Origin: Desulfuromonas sp. SDB
GTDB lineage: Bacteria; SDB-A
NCBI GenBank assembly: GCA_001412365.1
Contig: LKUE01000045.1
Coordinates: forward strand, 1 to 6,085
Direction of reading: 5' to 3'
DNA length: 6,085 bases
Shown: positions 1-6,000 of the stretch, one piece after another
Layout of the letters: the number at the start of each line of letters is the position of its first letter
Numbering within the stretch: the stretch's first letter is position 1
Notes under the pieces: model-generated
What the model saw: the letters and a program-made list of their open reading frames with translations, nothing else
Told to the model about the DNA's origin: nothing
The model's database searches: none
Made by a program: the position numbers and the translations under genes

Positions 1-1357
1 CAATCATATAATCTATAAGAGAAAAAAACTGCTTTTCAGTTATTTTGGAAAAACAGTAAATATTCTTTAAAATTTTCCACGCATCTTGTGGGGAAATACC
101 ATTATTTTGAAGACTTAAGCAGATCAACTGATGTGCCATAATATGAAAAGCTTTTGTTGGAAATTTTATAAATTCAGATATTTTCTTAACTCCTAAATTA
201 ACAACTGCAGTTAATAGCAATATATCTTCTGTTGAAAGGCATAAGCCTTTAAAAGATTGAATTGACCCTTTTCTTCTTCCTGTTCTTCCAACTCTTTGTA
301 AAAACGAACTAGAGCTGGCTAAAGATCCAACTTGAAAAACAGAATCAAGATCTCCAATATCAATACCCAACTCCAGTGTTGATGTACTAATAATACTATC
401 TATTCCACTTTCAAGATCTTTCTTCATGTTAATTCTTTTTTCAGCTTCTTCCCTATAATATTTACTTACAGAAGAATGATGAGTTCTAACTTTAAGTGGG
501 ATTTTTGTTCTCAGAGAATAATTTCTTTTATTTAACATTTCTGCAATTTTCTCAGTAAAGGTTCTTGATTGTGCAAAAACAATTGATTTCTTGTTAAATA
601 ATGATAAATATAACAATTCAATAAGTCTATTTAATGAATAGGTTCTGGGGGATCCTGGTTTTTCTTTTAACTCATTGAAAAATATCACACTATAATCATA
701 ATTTTTCTGTTTTGTTTCTATAACTTCAACAATTTGACCTTTGTCTCTTTTTTTCCCAGCTAACCATGATAGCATGTCCTCAGGGTTTCCAATTGTTGCT
801 GAAACAGCTATTCTCTGGGGTTTAATCTTTGCAAACCATTCAAGTCTTTCAATCACAGATATTAAATGAGATCCTCTATCACTTGATGCAAAATTATGTG
901 CTTCATCAATAATAATTACTTCAAGATTTTTAAAGTAAAGTTCCCAGCCAGATTTTCTTAATAAAATTGCCTCTAAAGATTCCGGTGTGGTTAATAGTAA
1001 TTGAGAAGGGATTTTAAGTTCATTGATTTTCTTTTTCTGTCCAACATCGCCATGCCATTTAAAACTATGTAAGCCACATGCTTCTGAATATTTTTTTGCT
1101 CTTATTTCAATATCATTCAACAATGCTTTCAAGGGAGCTAGATATAATATCTGAACTGAATTTGTTTTCTTTTTTGCAATTTTAGTTAAACTTGGAAATA
1201 ATACTGCTTCTGTTTTACCTCCAGCAGTAGGGGCAACAATAATACAATCTGATCCTTCCAATATTATCGGTAATGATTTTTTTTGTATTTCTGTTAATTG
1301 CTGCCAATTTTTTTCTACTATTAATTTTCTTAATCCTGGATTTAATTGTTTTAAAAT
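1..1357 (-). CDS. Lhr-like superfamily 2 DEAH helicase (BrxHI-like), C-terminus cut by window edge
   Basis: This is an ATP-dependent DNA helicase or translocase of the Lhr-like branch of superfamily 2; 452 codons are visible and the frame stays open to the left edge. Motifs in order are: a Q-motif-like LTEIQ near the start; motif I APTAGGKT (1211-1234); DEAH box (896-907); motif III SATIGN (785-802); motif IV SIVFAQSR; motif V STLELGIDIGDLD; and motif VI QRVGRTGRR (272-298). SATIGNPE and STLELGIDIGD are typical of Lhr, and APTAGGKTEA resembles the BREX helicase BrxHI as I remember it. Part of the helical region after the second RecA domain is present. The gene directly follows the BrxD-like ATPase, as brxHI follows brxD in type 2 and 6 BREX, so a role in phage defence or DNA surveillance is inferred. 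The start is odd: the frame is closed by TGA at 1372-1370 and has no ATG, GTG or TTG before the Q motif. ATT at 1357 is given because AAGGGA lies 7 bases upstream. The alternative is ATG at 1373 with a one-base frameshift. The helicase call is secure; the start is not. Confidence 0.88.
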   Translation of the reverse strand, partial: MLKQLNPGLRKLIVEKNWQQLTEIQKKSLPIILEGSDCIIVAPTAGGKTEAVLFPSLTKIAKKKTNSVQILYLAPLKALLNDIEIRAKKYSEACGLHSFKWHGDVGQKKKINELKIPSQLLLTTPESLEAILLRKSGWELYFKNLEVIIIDEAHNFASSDRGSHLISVIERLEWFAKIKPQRIAVSATIGNPEDMLSWLAGKKRDKGQIVEVIETKQKNYDYSVIFFNELKEKPGSPRTYSLNRLIELLYLSLFNKKSIVFAQSRTFTEKIAEMLNKRNYSLRTKIPLKVRTHHSSVSKYYREEAEKRINMKKDLESGIDSIISTSTLELGIDIGDLDSVFQVGSLASSSSFLQRVGRTGRRKGSIQSFKGLCLSTEDILLLTAVVNLGVKKISEFIKFPTKAFHIMAHQLICLSLQNNGISPQDAWKILKNIYCFSKITEKQFFSLIDYMI

Positions 1358-1373
1358 TTTAAATTCCCTTCAT
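1358..1373 (-). promoter_or_regulatory. Translation start region of the helicase, with two competing readings
   Basis: On the minus strand AAGGGA (1370-1365) resembles a Shine-Dalgarno site and lies 7 bases before ATT (1357-1355), the first possible non-standard start in the helicase frame. An ATG at 1373-1371 lies 3 bases after the ATPase stop but hits TAA after four codons. Removing one G from the GGG run (1368-1366) would join this ATG to the helicase frame and give an N-terminus reading MKEFKILKQL. The sequence alone cannot decide between the two. Either way the layout implies translational coupling to the upstream ATPase gene. Confidence 0.45.
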
Positions 1374-1376
1374 TTT

Positions 1377-4268
1377 TCAATCCAATATTGTATTAACTTG
1401 ATTAAAATTTTCTTTATTAGTCAATGAAATTCGAAAAAGTTCATTGTAAGATAAATCTGGATTTTCTTCGCAAAGATCGAGAATATTAATAAGTTCTCTT
1501 AAAATCGGTCTTGGTTTTCTACTAACAGTATCATCACCAAAAGAAGTCCATTCCCGAACCAAGTTCTTTAGACTTTCATCTGGCAATCTTGTTTTACTAT
1601 CCCAGCTATAAGCAACTCCATGTATATCTCTAATTTTACTGGTTACCCGAAATAATTTTTCATGATCAAGACCTTCAAGATTAATAACCGGTTGCCTTAA
1701 ACTTATCACCCCATCTGGAGTATTGGGGGAAATGATTCGTTCTGCTAATGCTTCATAACTCTTTAAGCCAGCTCTATCATCTTCAAAAAACATATCTGTT
1801 CCCGTAAAAATCAACAAACATCCTGGAAATCCATTTTTTCCAGATTCATCAATTAGTAGTCTTAAAATTTCTAAAGCTTGCTCTCTTTGTCTGGTTTGTG
1901 GGAATCGACGTATAAGTTCCAATTCATCAACGATTAAAAGTAATCCTTCATATCTAGTACCTTTAATAAGTTCTATTAAAGCTCTGATCCTGGGGAAAAC
2001 CTGGTTTGATTCCAAACATCCTTTTACACCTATTGTGTGTAAATTGCGACCTGATATCGTTTTACTACCATTTAACCAAGCAATAGCAATAGAAGCAGTT
2101 ACTTGATCTCCATTACTTCTAGCTTTATAAAAGGCTCTTAAAGCGGGTGCAAAACCAGGATCTAAATCAGAGAAATAAGATAATTCTCCCTCAACACGCT
2201 TTTCAACAAGAGAAGTTAATTTTTGTAAATTCTCGTTATTGATAGCAGATAAATTCTCAATTTTTGCTGTCTTTTTATGAATATTCAACAACCAGGATTC
2301 AATTATATCTACTAATGCACTGGAATCTCTTTTCTCTGATGTCCTAAGCCCATTGATTAAACCTGAATAAAAAATAGGCAAATCAGATAGTGGTTGATCT
2401 GGTCCAATATTAACTGTAGAGGTAGTGAATTTTTTATTAACAGCTTGTTCTCTTAGCCAGGAACATAAAAAAGTTTTTCCTGAACCATAAGGACCTTTAA
2501 TAAATTTGAAGGGTGATTTATTTTTTGCTTCTTCAAGCAATTCTAATAAATGTTGTCTTTGTTTTTTTTGTCCAATTACTAGAAGGTCTAAATTTTTATC
2601 AGGTACAACTCCCTGTCTAAGTGCATCAATAACATCTCTTGCTGATCTTAATTCAATCTTTTTTTCTTCGCTTATAAATTCACCTGCCCATTCATATATA
2701 TTTATACTTCTGACGCTTCTGATATTTAACGGATTCTTATTCATATTTTTTAATTTATTTGTCATTTCAGACATATGAGCTTTAATCAAAAACCATCCTA
2801 ATCCATGTCTGGAGCTTGCTCTTTCAATATCATGTTCTGTTAGTGATCTAGTTTCTTTAATCAAAGATAAAATTATTTTTTCATCTTCATCTAATTCAGG
2901 AAAATCTTTTGAAATTTCCATGTATCCCTTGGGTTTATCAATTCTAGTTTTAGTAATTATTGGTGATTCAAACTTTTCTTTCTCTAGTTCATCTTTTACT
3001 CCCTTAGCTTCCATACTTGCTTCTTGATCTTGTTCAACTGCTTTTAAAGTTGCTTCATTGAACAATGTCGATGCTCCTTCAATAAGTCTTTCAATTAATT
3101 CCCTTTTAACACCAGACACTCTAATGTTTAATTTTTTACAAAGCTCTGATAAATCAATTCTTCTTAACTTGTTCAATAATGTTCTTTCCGACCAGGGACT
3201 ATCAATTAATCTATTTACTTTTTCTTCTTTAGTTCCACTGGTTTTCAAAAAACTTTGCGATAAAATATCATATAGTTGATCATTTGTTAGATTTAAAAGT
3301 AGTTTAGAAAAAACATCATTAGTAATTTCTCTTTCTTCAGGATTTTCTGGAAATGGTGATTGAATTTCAACTTCTTTTTCTTCTATCAAATCCTTTTTAT
3401 TATCATAAAATTCAATTATATTTGAGATAACTTCTACTTTAGTACCAGAAACTTGTATTCCGTTATCTCTACAAAAATCTCTTAACTCATCAATATGAAG
3501 TGTATATAAAAATTCATTAGGCGGAATTAGAGAATCTAATACAGTTTGAGTTTTTTGTTCTTTATTACCACTTACTGGTAATCCGATTTTTTCCAGAACT
3601 CTATGTATTTGATTCCTTTTAATAGAAGATAGTAATCTAAAATAATCATTTCTTCCTAATTCAATTCCCCAAGCTCTACGAATTTGTACTGCTACTTCTT
3701 CTGCAATAACATAATTGTTTTGATAAGTTAGAACTAAACCTGTAATTAAAAGATGATTTCTTGCTGAAATATAAGCATTTGCTTGATCCCAAAGTCTTCT
3801 TACATCCGGATGATGCTCTAATAATAAATGCTCTCTGGTCCAAATATTTAATTCTTTTCGCAAAGTTTCAAGTAAAAAAGCTTCACTTCGATCAATTTTA
3901 TTTTCATGTTCCCATGCATTTTTTAAAACATTTAAATATAATTGATAATTCTTACCTGGGGTTAATCCACTGCCTGTATCTGCTTTTCTAGTCATTTCCT
4001 TAGTTAATTTAAGAACATTTTCTTGAAAACCTTCAATCGGTAACAAATAATTTTCAGCGTCCAGTAATATTCTTATAAAAGCATAAGTTGGTGGCCTAGA
4101 AGGAGCTAACGCACCGGCAACATAAGTCAAAGAACTTAAAGCTGCTGAAATTTCTTGAATTATTATATTTCTGGGGAGTCTTAAATTAGCAGATTCATCA
4201 ACTTTATCTGTTGATAATTGATCAATAGTGGCATCTGAATATTTATCTAGAATTTCAAGAATCTTCAT
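1377..4268 (-). CDS. BrxD-like (DUF2791) P-loop ATPase with TerB-like and four SAP-like N-terminal modules
   Basis: The protein has 963 residues. At the C-terminus (about 540-963) is a P-loop NTPase domain of the DUF2791 / BrxD type. It enters through an SARDVIDALRQGV segment, has Walker A GPYGSGKT (592-599), Walker B LLLIVDELE (D781, E782), then a sensor-like FTGTDMFFEDD (821-831) and SYEALAERI (837-845). The YGSGKTF, DELE and TGT..FF spacing fits the family. N-terminal to it lie a helical region with a TerB-like stretch (about 105-152), four SAP-like motifs (217-398) and an acidic linker. A helical segment (about 455-528) follows that could be a TerB-C-like or winged-helix domain. SAP motifs usually bind AT-rich DNA, so a DNA-bound cytoplasmic ATPase that works with the helicase next door is inferred. 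BREX BrxD proteins are normally much shorter, as I recall, so the front half is an added module. ATG at 4268 is preceded by AAGGAG at 7 bases; the stop is TGA. The preceding membrane-protein gene ends 48 bases upstream. The ATPase class is secure; a BREX role is inferred from context. Confidence 0.9.
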   Translation of the reverse strand: MKILEILDKYSDATIDQLSTDKVDESANLRLPRNIIIQEISAALSSLTYVAGALAPSRPPTYAFIRILLDAENYLLPIEGFQENVLKLTKEMTRKADTGSGLTPGKNYQLYLNVLKNAWEHENKIDRSEAFLLETLRKELNIWTREHLLLEHHPDVRRLWDQANAYISARNHLLITGLVLTYQNNYVIAEEVAVQIRRAWGIELGRNDYFRLLSSIKRNQIHRVLEKIGLPVSGNKEQKTQTVLDSLIPPNEFLYTLHIDELRDFCRDNGIQVSGTKVEVISNIIEFYDNKKDLIEEKEVEIQSPFPENPEEREITNDVFSKLLLNLTNDQLYDILSQSFLKTSGTKEEKVNRLIDSPWSERTLLNKLRRIDLSELCKKLNIRVSGVKRELIERLIEGASTLFNEATLKAVEQDQEASMEAKGVKDELEKEKFESPIITKTRIDKPKGYMEISKDFPELDEDEKIILSLIKETRSLTEHDIERASSRHGLGWFLIKAHMSEMTNKLKNMNKNPLNIRSVRSINIYEWAGEFISEEKKIELRSARDVIDALRQGVVPDKNLDLLVIGQKKQRQHLLELLEEAKNKSPFKFIKGPYGSGKTFLCSWLREQAVNKKFTTSTVNIGPDQPLSDLPIFYSGLINGLRTSEKRDSSALVDIIESWLLNIHKKTAKIENLSAINNENLQKLTSLVEKRVEGELSYFSDLDPGFAPALRAFYKARSNGDQVTASIAIAWLNGSKTISGRNLHTIGVKGCLESNQVFPRIRALIELIKGTRYEGLLLIVDELELIRRFPQTRQREQALEILRLLIDESGKNGFPGCLLIFTGTDMFFEDDRAGLKSYEALAERIISPNTPDGVISLRQPVINLEGLDHEKLFRVTSKIRDIHGVAYSWDSKTRLPDESLKNLVREWTSFGDDTVSRKPRPILRELINILDLCEENPDLSYNELFRISLTNKENFNQVNTILD
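3075..3620 (-). repeat. Four SAP-like motifs arranged as a duplicated pair within the ATPase
   Basis: Residues 217-398 contain four helix-turn-helix units with the core hydrophobic-x-x-V/T-S-G-x-K: GLPVSGNK (229-236), GIQVSGTK (270-277), LKTSGTK (341-347) and NIRVSGVK (381-388). This glycine-lysine turn between two helices marks SAP domains. The serine-glycine pairs are 41 residues apart within the first pair, 41 within the second, and 70 between the pairs. The two pairs align without gaps, which suggests that a two-SAP unit was duplicated as a block. The individual SAP calls rest on motif recognition and are moderately certain. Confidence 0.7.
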
Positions 4269-4275
4269 TTTGATT

Positions 4276-4281
4276 CTCCTT
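4276..4281 (-). promoter_or_regulatory. Ribosome binding site of the BrxD-like ATPase
   Basis: AAGGAG on the minus strand ends 7 bases before the ATG at 4268, which fixes that start. The 48-base gap to the preceding stop codon is AT-rich. I see no clear terminator hairpin in it, so read-through from the membrane-protein gene is likely. An extra promoter in the AT-rich gap cannot be excluded. Confidence 0.8.
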
Positions 4282-4316: not shown

Positions 4317-5972
4317 CTATCTCAAATCACCGGCAAATCTTCTAAGTGAGCATAAATCGTATATTTCTATTATCTCCTGGAACACTTTCAGGTCGTTGGA
4401 GGACAGTTGGTAGGAGTCCCTACCCTGGGATCCCCAGTAGATTACCCATACTTCTGAACCAGTGGCAATTTTCCGGATCAGAGATTCCTGACCGGAAATG
4501 TCCACCCATTCGGAAACTCCGTAACCGGTGGGATCCTGATTTACATTACTGGGGCTGAGAGGAAAATCGTATTCAGTCCCATCCACTTTTATGGTAATCT
4601 TCTCCAGAAACAGCCAGTCGGAGAGATTGTATCCCACTCTCAGCAAAAGCCATTTATCCATGGCGCTTTTCAATCCTATATAGGGATAACACATATGTCT
4701 TCGAGAATTGACGTAAACTGGTGAATTATTATGCTTTACCCAAATAATATTCAACGCCTCCTCTTCGTCAATCCTCATTCTATACTTCAAGGTCTGAAAT
4801 CTTCGGTCCTGATTTATACTGTCCTGTCTTACCGCCCGGGCGATGCTGTCCTGAACTCTAATTTGCTCTAAGCTGTCCTCAATCCTTTTTTGCTCCAGAC
4901 TTTCCAATCTCAAGCTTTCCGCCTTCATCAAGGTTGAAAAACTATCCGGATTGTGAATCTCCAGACTGTCTAAAAATGCCTGATAAAGTCTAACTTGCGC
5001 TAAGCTGTCCTCTATCCTAACCTGGCGGATGCTGTCCTGATACTTCGCCCTTCTCTGCTCTTGTTCCCTTCTCGCTTTATTCTCGCAACTATTGACAATT
5101 ACTGAGAAAATTGTACACAAACTGACAGCTCCAACTATACAGATAATTACAATTATCATCGCCAGATTAGAAGTGGTCATCCTGGGCATTTTCGGTCTCG
5201 GTCCTTTCTCTCCTGCCTTCTTCCACTGATCTAACTTATTCAGATAAGTTACTTTCTTGTTGTAATAAGATTTTTGCCTGCTGATATACCGGTTAAAGCT
5301 GGTCTTGATATTTTGTTTGAGAAAATCAGAGGTAATGCTTACTTCTTTTTGAAACTTAAAGTTATTAATACTGATCAGTTTCAAAAAATCAAGAATTTCC
5401 CGGGTGAAATCAATGTCCTCTTCGTAAAACTTCTCCAGTTCCTTATATGCCTGAAGGTATTTAACTGAATTTTCCTGGAACAATCTTTTTTCATTTAAAA
5501 TATTTGGAGACTGGGTTATCTGCTTCCGGTCGAAAACAAAAAATCTTTCCTTTCCCCGGTTAAGCAATGAACGTAATTTTTCATATACTTCTGATCTGAC
5601 CTTTTCCTGCTCCACTGGATCGTAGAGTTCAACTACTTTTTTAAAACATTGAATGGACTCGGAAGTTCTGAGGTTCTCCCTGGTTGAAATTAAGAAAGTG
5701 GTTTCCGCCTTTCCCAGCCAGGCGTCTTTTGATTTAATGTTAATTTCCAGATAGCGGTTGTAGTAGTCCAGGGCTTCTCTGTAGTTGCCAAAATCCTTGG
5801 CTGAATCGGCAAGCTTGAGCAGATTTTCTTTTTTTACCGAATCAGCTCCTCCCAGGACCTCTTTTACAATGATCTTGGTCCCGCAGTACATGCAGGAAAC
5901 GACATCTTTATCTTCGGGCAGCTGGAGTTCTCCTCCGCAGCTAGGGCATTTTGCCGGTCTAAATTTAGACAT
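4317..5972 (-). CDS. Zinc-ribbon, TPR and single-membrane-span protein with charged D-S repeats and a conserved C-terminal domain
   Basis: The protein has 551 residues from ATG at 5972 and ends at TAG. I do not recognise a named family for the whole protein. In order it shows: an N-terminal zinc ribbon with CxxC pairs (C9/C12 and C27/C30); one or two TPR-like helix pairs (about 47-116), including NYREALDYYNRYLEI; a long helical region; and a basic proline-containing segment just before a hydrophobic span (about 269-294). After the span come nine-residue D-S-I/L repeats (about 312-390), probably a charged helix or coiled coil. A C-terminal domain (about 399-536) follows, rich in aromatic residues, with WVKHNNSPVYVN, WLFLEKITIKVDG and SEWVDI. 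Related C-terminal segments occur in bacterial lipoproteins and membrane proteins, as far as I recall; their function is unknown to me. With no signal peptide, the zinc ribbon and TPR region are probably cytoplasmic and the repeats and C-terminal domain outside, consistent with the basic residues before the span. A sensor or scaffold is possible. Codon use is more GC-rich than in the two following genes. A GTG at 5999 would add nine residues but lacks a good ribosome site. Confidence 0.88.
   Translation of the reverse strand: MSKFRPAKCPSCGGELQLPEDKDVVSCMYCGTKIIVKEVLGGADSVKKENLLKLADSAKDFGNYREALDYYNRYLEINIKSKDAWLGKAETTFLISTRENLRTSESIQCFKKVVELYDPVEQEKVRSEVYEKLRSLLNRGKERFFVFDRKQITQSPNILNEKRLFQENSVKYLQAYKELEKFYEEDIDFTREILDFLKLISINNFKFQKEVSITSDFLKQNIKTSFNRYISRQKSYYNKKVTYLNKLDQWKKAGEKGPRPKMPRMTTSNLAMIIVIICIVGAVSLCTIFSVIVNSCENKARREQEQRRAKYQDSIRQVRIEDSLAQVRLYQAFLDSLEIHNPDSFSTLMKAESLRLESLEQKRIEDSLEQIRVQDSIARAVRQDSINQDRRFQTLKYRMRIDEEEALNIIWVKHNNSPVYVNSRRHMCYPYIGLKSAMDKWLLLRVGYNLSDWLFLEKITIKVDGTEYDFPLSPSNVNQDPTGYGVSEWVDISGQESLIRKIATGSEVWVIYWGSQGRDSYQLSSNDLKVFQEIIEIYDLCSLRRFAGDLR
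4803..5039 (-). repeat. Imperfect nine-residue D-S-I/L repeats in the membrane protein
   Basis: After the transmembrane span the protein repeats a nine-residue unit close to x-D-S-I/L-x-Q-V/I-R-I. The clearest copies are QDSIRQVRI, EDSLAQVRL, EDSLEQIRV, QDSIARAVR and QDSINQDRR. The aspartates of the first two are 9 residues apart, and so are those of the last three. Looser ESL and DSL copies lie between. At DNA level this appears on the plus strand as recurring GCTGTCCT words. The charged, heptad-breaking pattern suggests an extended helix or stalk outside the membrane. Confidence 0.75.
5091..5168 (-). other. Codons for the single transmembrane segment of the membrane protein
   Basis: About 26 uncharged residues (NLAMIIVIICIVGAVSLC and the following stretch) form one membrane span. 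It is flanked by a basic KGPRPKMPR-type segment before it and a charged ENKARREQEQRR-type segment after it. The basic residues on the N-terminal side are consistent with the N-terminus in the cytoplasm, but the C-terminal flank is also charged, so the topology is inferred and not certain. Confidence 0.8.
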
Positions 5973-5977
5973 CTTCT

Positions 5978-5982
5978 CTCCT
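5978..5982 (-). promoter_or_regulatory. Ribosome binding site that sets the membrane-protein start at 5972
   Basis: AGGAG on the minus strand lies 5 bases before the ATG at 5972-5970. The zinc ribbon begins eight residues after that methionine. The upstream in-frame GTG at 5999 has only AT-rich or unrelated sequence before it, so the ATG is preferred. Confidence 0.8.
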
Positions 5983-6000
5983 ATAAAATTTTTTACCACT

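What the first reader, a model, noticed from the sequence alone, without database searches (positions are those of the whole stretch)
1..4268. BrxD-like ATPase paired with an Lhr-like helicase, with no other BREX gene in view
The gene order ATPase then helicase matches brxD-brxHI of type 2 and type 6 BREX. Within the window, however, the upstream neighbour is an unrelated membrane protein instead of pglZ, pglX or brxC. The ATPase also has a large N-terminal addition. This may be a stand-alone two-gene defence or DNA-surveillance module that shares its engine with BREX. What is seen is the motifs and the order; the BREX parallel comes from known loci; the stand-alone role is inferred.
Basis: partly seen in the sequence, partly recalled or inferred. 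Interest (0 to 1): 0.62.

Follow-up and report, generated by a model that had tools for sequence, protein, structure and literature searches.

The report
SAP-fused BrxD ATPase with BrxHI-type helicase
Two adjacent bacterial genes encode a DNA-binding motor-loader and a helicase of the kind used in the BREX and Shango phage-defence systems, but here they stand apart from both, as a compact pair that turns up again in an unrelated bacterium, so they are probably a small and so far unnamed defence system whose downstream end has not been seen.

Summary
A 963-aa protein carries a BrxC/BrxD-type AAA+ ATPase (Pfam 3e-97, residues 539-946). It is followed after 3 nt by a BrxHI/SngC/Lhr-type helicase cut by the contig end. 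The contig is exactly the window, so it cannot be extended, but the 98.7%-complete genome has no other BrxC/BrxD and its only PglZ-domain protein looks like PorX: no BREX was found.

What is new: (1) The N-terminal half holds a duplicated SAP/HeH pair. Its first 300 residues are homologous to the N-terminus of ~515-aa FokI-type nucleases in other phyla. (2) The same whole fusion (52% identical, same 3-nt spacing to the helicase gene) occurs in genome G407, outside the window's phylum, behind an unrelated upstream gene. So the fused pair is a recurring unit. (3) Trees put the ATPase in its own clade, outside Shango and not nested in BREX-2.

Best reading: a third partner arrangement for the BrxD-BrxHI dyad, with SAP motifs built in as DNA-targeting part. 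Defence is inferred from kinship and patchy occurrence. The downstream side is unseen in both loci, and both helicase genes show defects (frameshift at the start; truncation).

The parts
1377..4268 (-). 963-aa fusion protein: helical module, duplicated SAP/HeH pair, conserved small domain, BrxD-type AAA+ ATPase
   Evidence: RBS-like aggag at 4276-4280
3624..4199 (-). Residues 24-215: mostly helical module, 55% identical to G407, homologous to the N-terminus of FokI-type nucleases; TerB-like motif 110-154 only suggestive
3411..3638 (-). Residues 211-286: first SAP/HeH pair (Pfam SAP at 260-292)
3078..3305 (-). Residues 322-397: second SAP/HeH pair, internal duplicate of the first (Pfam SAP at 365-397)
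   Evidence: score 109 against 27 +/- 4.8 in 2000 shuffles
2679..2903 (-). Residues 456-530: conserved domain just before the ATPase, winged-helix-like by eye (52% identical to G407; flanking linker only 17%)
1431..2654 (-). Residues 539-946: BrxC/BrxD-type AAA+ ATPase
2472..2495 (-). Walker A GPYGSGKT (592-599); Walker B LLIVDE at 777
2..1369 (-). BrxHI/SngC/Lhr-type SF2 helicase, open frame cut by the contig end; motifs APTAGGKT, DEAH, SAT, TLELGID, QRVGRTGR
1371..1373 (-). Likely helicase start ATG, 3 nt after the ATPase stop, one base out of frame with the helicase ORF; G407 has the same 3-nt spacing and an in-frame start

Best explanation
A compact two-gene module: an AAA+ (ORC/Cdc6-like) BrxD ATPase with a built-in SAP-rich DNA-binding module, plus its partner BrxHI/Lhr-type SF2 helicase. 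Shown: the domains, the intact ATPase and helicase motifs, the operon-like 3-nt spacing, recurrence of the whole arrangement in a genome outside the window's phylum, and separation from BREX-2 and Shango lineages. Inferred: the SAP/HeH repeats bind DNA and direct the complex; the ATPase oligomerises on DNA and loads or switches on the helicase; the helicase then unwinds or strips invading DNA and blocks its replication, or hands it to a nuclease not encoded by the pair. It works like the BrxD-BrxHI and SngB-SngC dyads, with the separate partner protein (BREX core or TerB SngA) replaced by a fused targeting module.
For: Family hits. Second locus G407/L124: 52% identity over the whole fusion, helicase 3 nt downstream at 51%, upstream gene an ATP-sulfurylase/APS kinase, so the upstream side is not conserved. 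2 of 65 strong BrxC/BrxD matches carry the fusion. Own clade 100/99, Shango clade 100/100 without it; helicase tree also outside Shango. N-terminal module shared with FokI-type nucleases. No match to the ATPase in the three other genomes of the host family. BrxD as possible loader of BrxHI: PMC12839542; SngC, BrxHI, DruE and DpdJ as a defence helicase clade: PMC12278908.
Against: No phage data. No other defence gene is visible beside either locus. Both contigs end in or just after the helicase, so a third gene downstream is possible. The window helicase has an apparent one-base frameshift at its start. In G407 an in-frame TAG sits at codon 9 of the upstream ATG frame and the helicase stops at residue 249. 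Only two examples are known.
Confidence: 0.55

Rival explanations
1. A larger multi-gene system whose remaining genes lie beyond the left contig end, downstream of the helicase, for example with a nuclease.
For: The contig ends inside the helicase and in G407 98 nt after the truncated helicase ORF, so the downstream side is unseen in both.
Against: In the sampled Shango loci the helicase is usually the last gene and nothing conserved follows it, and no BREX-2 core gene follows it in the BREX-2 loci. The genome has no other BrxC/D and no BREX-type PglZ.
Confidence: 0.25
2. A divergent Shango system in which SngA (TerB) and SngB became one gene.
For: Same dyad and order. The only alignment of the N-terminal profile with SngA falls on the TerB domain (residues 110-154), and G407 reads ESDGHIDRSEALLLKALREHLGI there.
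Against: That alignment is not significant (HHalign probability 0.8-4.8%). A TerB profile scores the protein at noise level (E 3.8-8.5). No TerB_N, TerB_C or TerB Pfam hit. BrxD and BrxHI outscore SngB and SngC, and the ATPase is outside the Shango clade, although its place next to that clade is unresolved (71/19).
Confidence: 0.12
3. The end of an ordinary BREX type 2 locus.
For: Best family matches are BrxD and BrxHI.
Against: Upstream gene is unrelated and differs between the two loci; no BrxC or BREX-type PglZ in the genome. In the BREX-2 loci read here PglZ lies directly upstream of BrxD and BrxD is 430-443 aa.
Confidence: 0.03
4. A decayed remnant with no present function.
For: Frameshift at the helicase start; G407 copy with in-frame stop and truncated helicase.
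Against: Otherwise open frames of 963 and 456 codons with all motifs intact; domains 52-56% identical between the two copies against 17% in the linker, as expected under purifying selection. A one-base assembly error would explain the start.
Confidence: 0.15

Closest known systems
BREX type 2 BrxD-BrxHI dyad
   Same: ATPase family PF10923, helicase family, gene order, tight linkage; best profile matches
   Different: No PglZ, PglX or BrxC beside it and no BrxC or BREX-type PglZ found in the genome; 530 extra N-terminal residues with SAP motifs, whereas BrxD is described as lacking added DNA-binding domains (PMC12839542); separate clade
Shango SngA-SngB-SngC
   Same: BrxD-like ATPase followed by BrxHI-like helicase, working without BREX genes; known anti-phage activity (PMC10250203)
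   Different: No TerB protein upstream, no significant TerB, TerB_N or TerB_C match; ATPase outside the Shango clade
SAP plus FokI-type nucleases of about 515 aa (L022, L015, L030, L031, L033)
   Same: Residues 1-300 of the window protein are homologous to their N-terminal half
   Different: They end in a FokI-like PD-(D/E)XK nuclease instead of the ATPase and stand alone; one SAP pair instead of two
Hachiman HamAB and Druantia III DruH-DruE
   Same: Two-component defence with an SF2 helicase (PMC12278908, PMC13316683)
   Different: No AAA+ loader in those; no nuclease visible here

Membership tests
BREX (type 2) | BrxC/PglY ATPase | tested here: not met
   PF10923 search of the own genome: one strong match, the window protein itself
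BREX (type 2) | PglZ | tested here: not met
   Only PglZ hit is a 518-aa receiver-plus-PglZ protein, PorX-like, on another contig
BREX (type 2) | PglX methyltransferase and PglW kinase | not tested
   No separate genome search; absent from the contig
BREX BrxD equivalog (NF033438) | Score over the curated cutoff of 350 | tested here: not met
   264 bits
PF10923 BrxC_BrxD superfamily | Score over gathering cutoff, Walker motifs | tested here: met
   326 bits against 22.2; GPYGSGKT and LLIVDE
BrxHI/SngC/Lhr-like SF2 helicase | Helicase motifs and family profile | tested here: met
BrxHI/SngC/Lhr-like SF2 helicase | Lhr-type C-terminal domain | not testable with these tools
   Cut by the contig end; G407 copy truncated
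Shango | TerB protein SngA next to SngB | tested here: not met
   Upstream gene P0002 has no TerB match; no SngA profile hit on the contig
Shango | TerB domain within the N-terminal module | tested here: inconclusive
   Noise-level profile match in the right register; model of pLDDT 54
Shango | ATPase in the SngB clade | tested here: not met
   SngB clade 100/100 excludes it; sister position unresolved
SAP-domain DNA-binding proteins | SAP domain over Pfam cutoff | tested here: met
   64.6 bits against 23.9, two stretches; also in G407

The most novel reading that the evidence does not exclude
A self-contained, nuclease-free, two-gene anti-phage system: a SAP-repeat targeting module fused to a BrxD loader drives one BrxHI-type helicase, and the same targeting module is swapped in evolution between this motor and FokI-type nuclease domains.
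Probability: 0.35. Interest if true: 0.7.

Novelty: new variant of a known kind. Interest (0 to 1): 0.52.

Why it matters
What BrxD and BrxHI do in BREX, and SngB and SngC in Shango, is unknown, partly because those systems have many parts. A pair that carries its own DNA-binding module and may need no other protein would be a much simpler way to test whether BrxD loads the helicase on DNA, and what the pair does to invading DNA. It also shows the dyad being plugged to different partners (BREX core, TerB protein, leucine-rich-repeat proteins, a second ATPase, or fused SAP motifs), which suggests that it is a common engine of several defence systems.

Tried and rejected
Extending the contig: impossible, contig equals window. 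Relatives of the whole protein in phages, plasmids, viral contigs and genome contigs: none over the full length; plasmid matches cover the ATPase part only. TerB identity of the N-terminus: HHalign, HMMER and Pfam give no significant support. Relation of residues 456-530 to the TerB_C domain that ends SngA: not supported. AlphaFold2 of the N-terminal 305 residues: pLDDT 54, not used for a fold search. The model of the nuclease relative L030 (pLDDT 74) confirms the FokI-like domain (Z 10-11); its N-terminal part matches winged-helix proteins only at Z 7-8.5, which the tool calls common, and no TerB structure was listed. A mixed alignment for a full-length model was misaligned by MAFFT and not used. 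G554, with a 979-codon open frame over a BrxD match, has no match to the N-terminal module and its predicted ORF is a GC-rich open frame; I read it as an ordinary BREX-2 locus. G+C of the pair (0.29-0.33) against the upstream gene (0.41) fits acquisition, but sampled stretches of the genome mostly range from 0.32 to 0.42 (two masked loci left out), so this is weak.

Full report
Setting. The window is one whole contig, G000:C45, of 6085 bases in a 433-contig, 98.7% complete assembly. Only three other genomes of the same family are held and the next relatives share only the domain, so the host belongs to a sparsely sampled lineage. Three genes are read on the minus strand: a 560-aa protein (4317-5999), the 963-aa ATPase (1377-4268) and a helicase cut by the contig end.

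The ATPase. Residues 539-946 match Pfam BrxC_BrxD at 3e-97, with Walker A GPYGSGKT and Walker B LLIVDE. PADLOC BrxD scores 267 bits and Shango SngB 197; NCBIfam's stricter BrxD model is not passed. N-terminal to it lie two significant SAP domains. A local alignment shows that residues 211-286 and 322-397 are duplicates (score 109 against 27 +/- 4.8 for 2000 shuffles; the same in the G407 relative), so there are two SAP/HeH pairs. Residues 456-530 form a further conserved small domain directly before the ATPase.

The helicase. Its 456 codons match BrxHI best, then SngC, and Lhr among solved structures. The core SF2 motifs searched for are present. No ATG, GTG or TTG lies in frame before codon 37, but an ATG 3 nt behind the ATPase stop sits one base out of frame. 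The G407 relative starts its helicase after the same 3-nt gap and in frame, so this ATG is probably the real start and the window has either an assembly error or a real frameshift.

No BREX. The own genome holds one strong PF10923 match, this one, and one PglZ-domain protein of 518 aa with an N-terminal receiver domain, PorX-like, on another contig. PglX and PglW were not searched for separately.

Parallels of the dyad. The ATPase-helicase pair recurs with different partners: PglX-PglZ in BREX-2 (L029, L083, L085, L101, L103), TerB proteins in Shango (L026, L027, L080-L082, L104, L106), leucine-rich-repeat-variant proteins on a Deinococcus plasmid (L028), and a second ATPase plus a ~285-aa protein (L090, L092-L094 and others). 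Shango is a proven anti-phage system (PMC10250203). SngC and BrxHI have been placed in one defence-associated SF2 clade (PMC12278908), and BrxD has been proposed to load or activate BrxHI and described as lacking extra DNA-binding domains (PMC12839542).

A second locus. A census of PF10923 in 195 genomes of another phylum found G407:C62, 321 bits in a 956-codon frame. Its protein is 52% identical to the window protein: helical part 55%, SAP region 52%, domain 456-530 52%, ATPase 56%, linker only 17%. The helicase follows 3 nt later at 51% identity but stops after 249 codons, 98 nt before the contig end, and an in-frame TAG stands at codon 9 of the upstream ATG. The upstream gene is an ATP-sulfurylase/APS kinase, unrelated to the window's upstream gene. 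So the fusion is not an assembly chimera, its upstream side is not conserved, and the pair has moved between distant hosts. Of 65 PF10923 matches over 100 bits, two have this architecture.

Phylogeny. With both members in the tree they form a clade (100/99) on a long branch. All Shango ATPases form another clade (100/100). Their relation to BREX-2 is unresolved: holding them with BREX-2 is not rejected (p-AU 0.10) and the join with Shango has 71/19 support. The helicase tree, without G407, places the window next to BREX-2, within a starred set of BREX-2 plus the Deinococcus pair, outside Shango.

The N-terminal module elsewhere. Residues 1-300 are homologous (about 25% identical) to the N-terminal part of ~515-aa proteins in Kiritimatiellae, Aegiribacteria and two further MAG lineages. 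Their C-terminal parts carry a conserved E...E...(P/A)DG...WDxK pattern, weak Pfam FokI hits, and an AlphaFold2 model that matches FokI and Nt.BspD6I (Foldseek 5e-5; VIA-align Z 10-11). The same module is thus attached either to a nuclease or to the BrxD motor. A TerB-like segment at 110-154 is suggestive but not significant.

Mechanism. Shown: domains, motifs, linkage, recurrence. Inferred from the families: SAP/HeH repeats bind DNA, the ORC-like ATPase assembles on it and loads the helicase, which disrupts invading DNA. There is no nuclease in the visible pair, so either strand separation itself blocks the invader, as reported for the helicase-based DruH-DruE system that prevents phage DNA circularisation and replication (PMC13316683, abstract), or another nuclease acts. 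Defence is an inference from the helicase and ATPase kinship and from the patchy distribution (no match in the three other genomes of the family).

Verdict. Observation confirmed; stand-alone reading strengthened by an independent second locus; two-gene completeness and defence unproven. A new variant of the BrxD-BrxHI kind.

Noticed in passing
L090, L092, L093, L094 (also L029 11601-16995, L089): A recurring four-gene set: a ~280-aa protein without Pfam match, two tandem BrxD-like ATPases and a BrxHI-like helicase. It groups apart from BREX-2 and Shango and may be an unnamed defence module.
   Followed up: partly
L030 5846-7381, L031 272-1819, L033 7767-9317, L022 7603-9135, L015 1126-2688; partial relative on a Natrinema plasmid, L108 4455-6095: A family of ~515-aa proteins with SAP domain and FokI-type nuclease, apparently single genes, in scattered bacterial MAGs with a relative in a haloarchaeon.
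   Followed up: partly
L075 2-1393; L084 1-1290: Shango SngA variants: one carries a RecU-like nuclease region before TerB_N and TerB_C, another ORF shows sigma-70 regions upstream of TerB_C.
   Followed up: no
L028 4020-17200 (Deinococcus psychrotolerans plasmid): Two consecutive BrxD-helicase pairs with nearly identical ATPases and helicases on one plasmid, the first preceded by two related leucine-rich-repeat-variant proteins.
   Followed up: partly
L076 7488-15331: A SngB-like gene and a SngC-like gene are separated by a 4.2-kb stretch coding for a 311-aa and a 1006-aa protein, an unusual split Shango.
   Followed up: no
L124 6600-6626 and 10240-10345: In G407 the fusion gene has an in-frame TAG at codon 9 and the helicase ORF ends abruptly in unrelated sequence near the contig end, perhaps an inserted element.
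   Followed up: no
window 4317-5999: 560-aa zinc-ribbon/TPR protein with one likely transmembrane segment and repeated charged QDSI/EDSL motifs; no full-length relative in 20 related genomes.
   Followed up: partly
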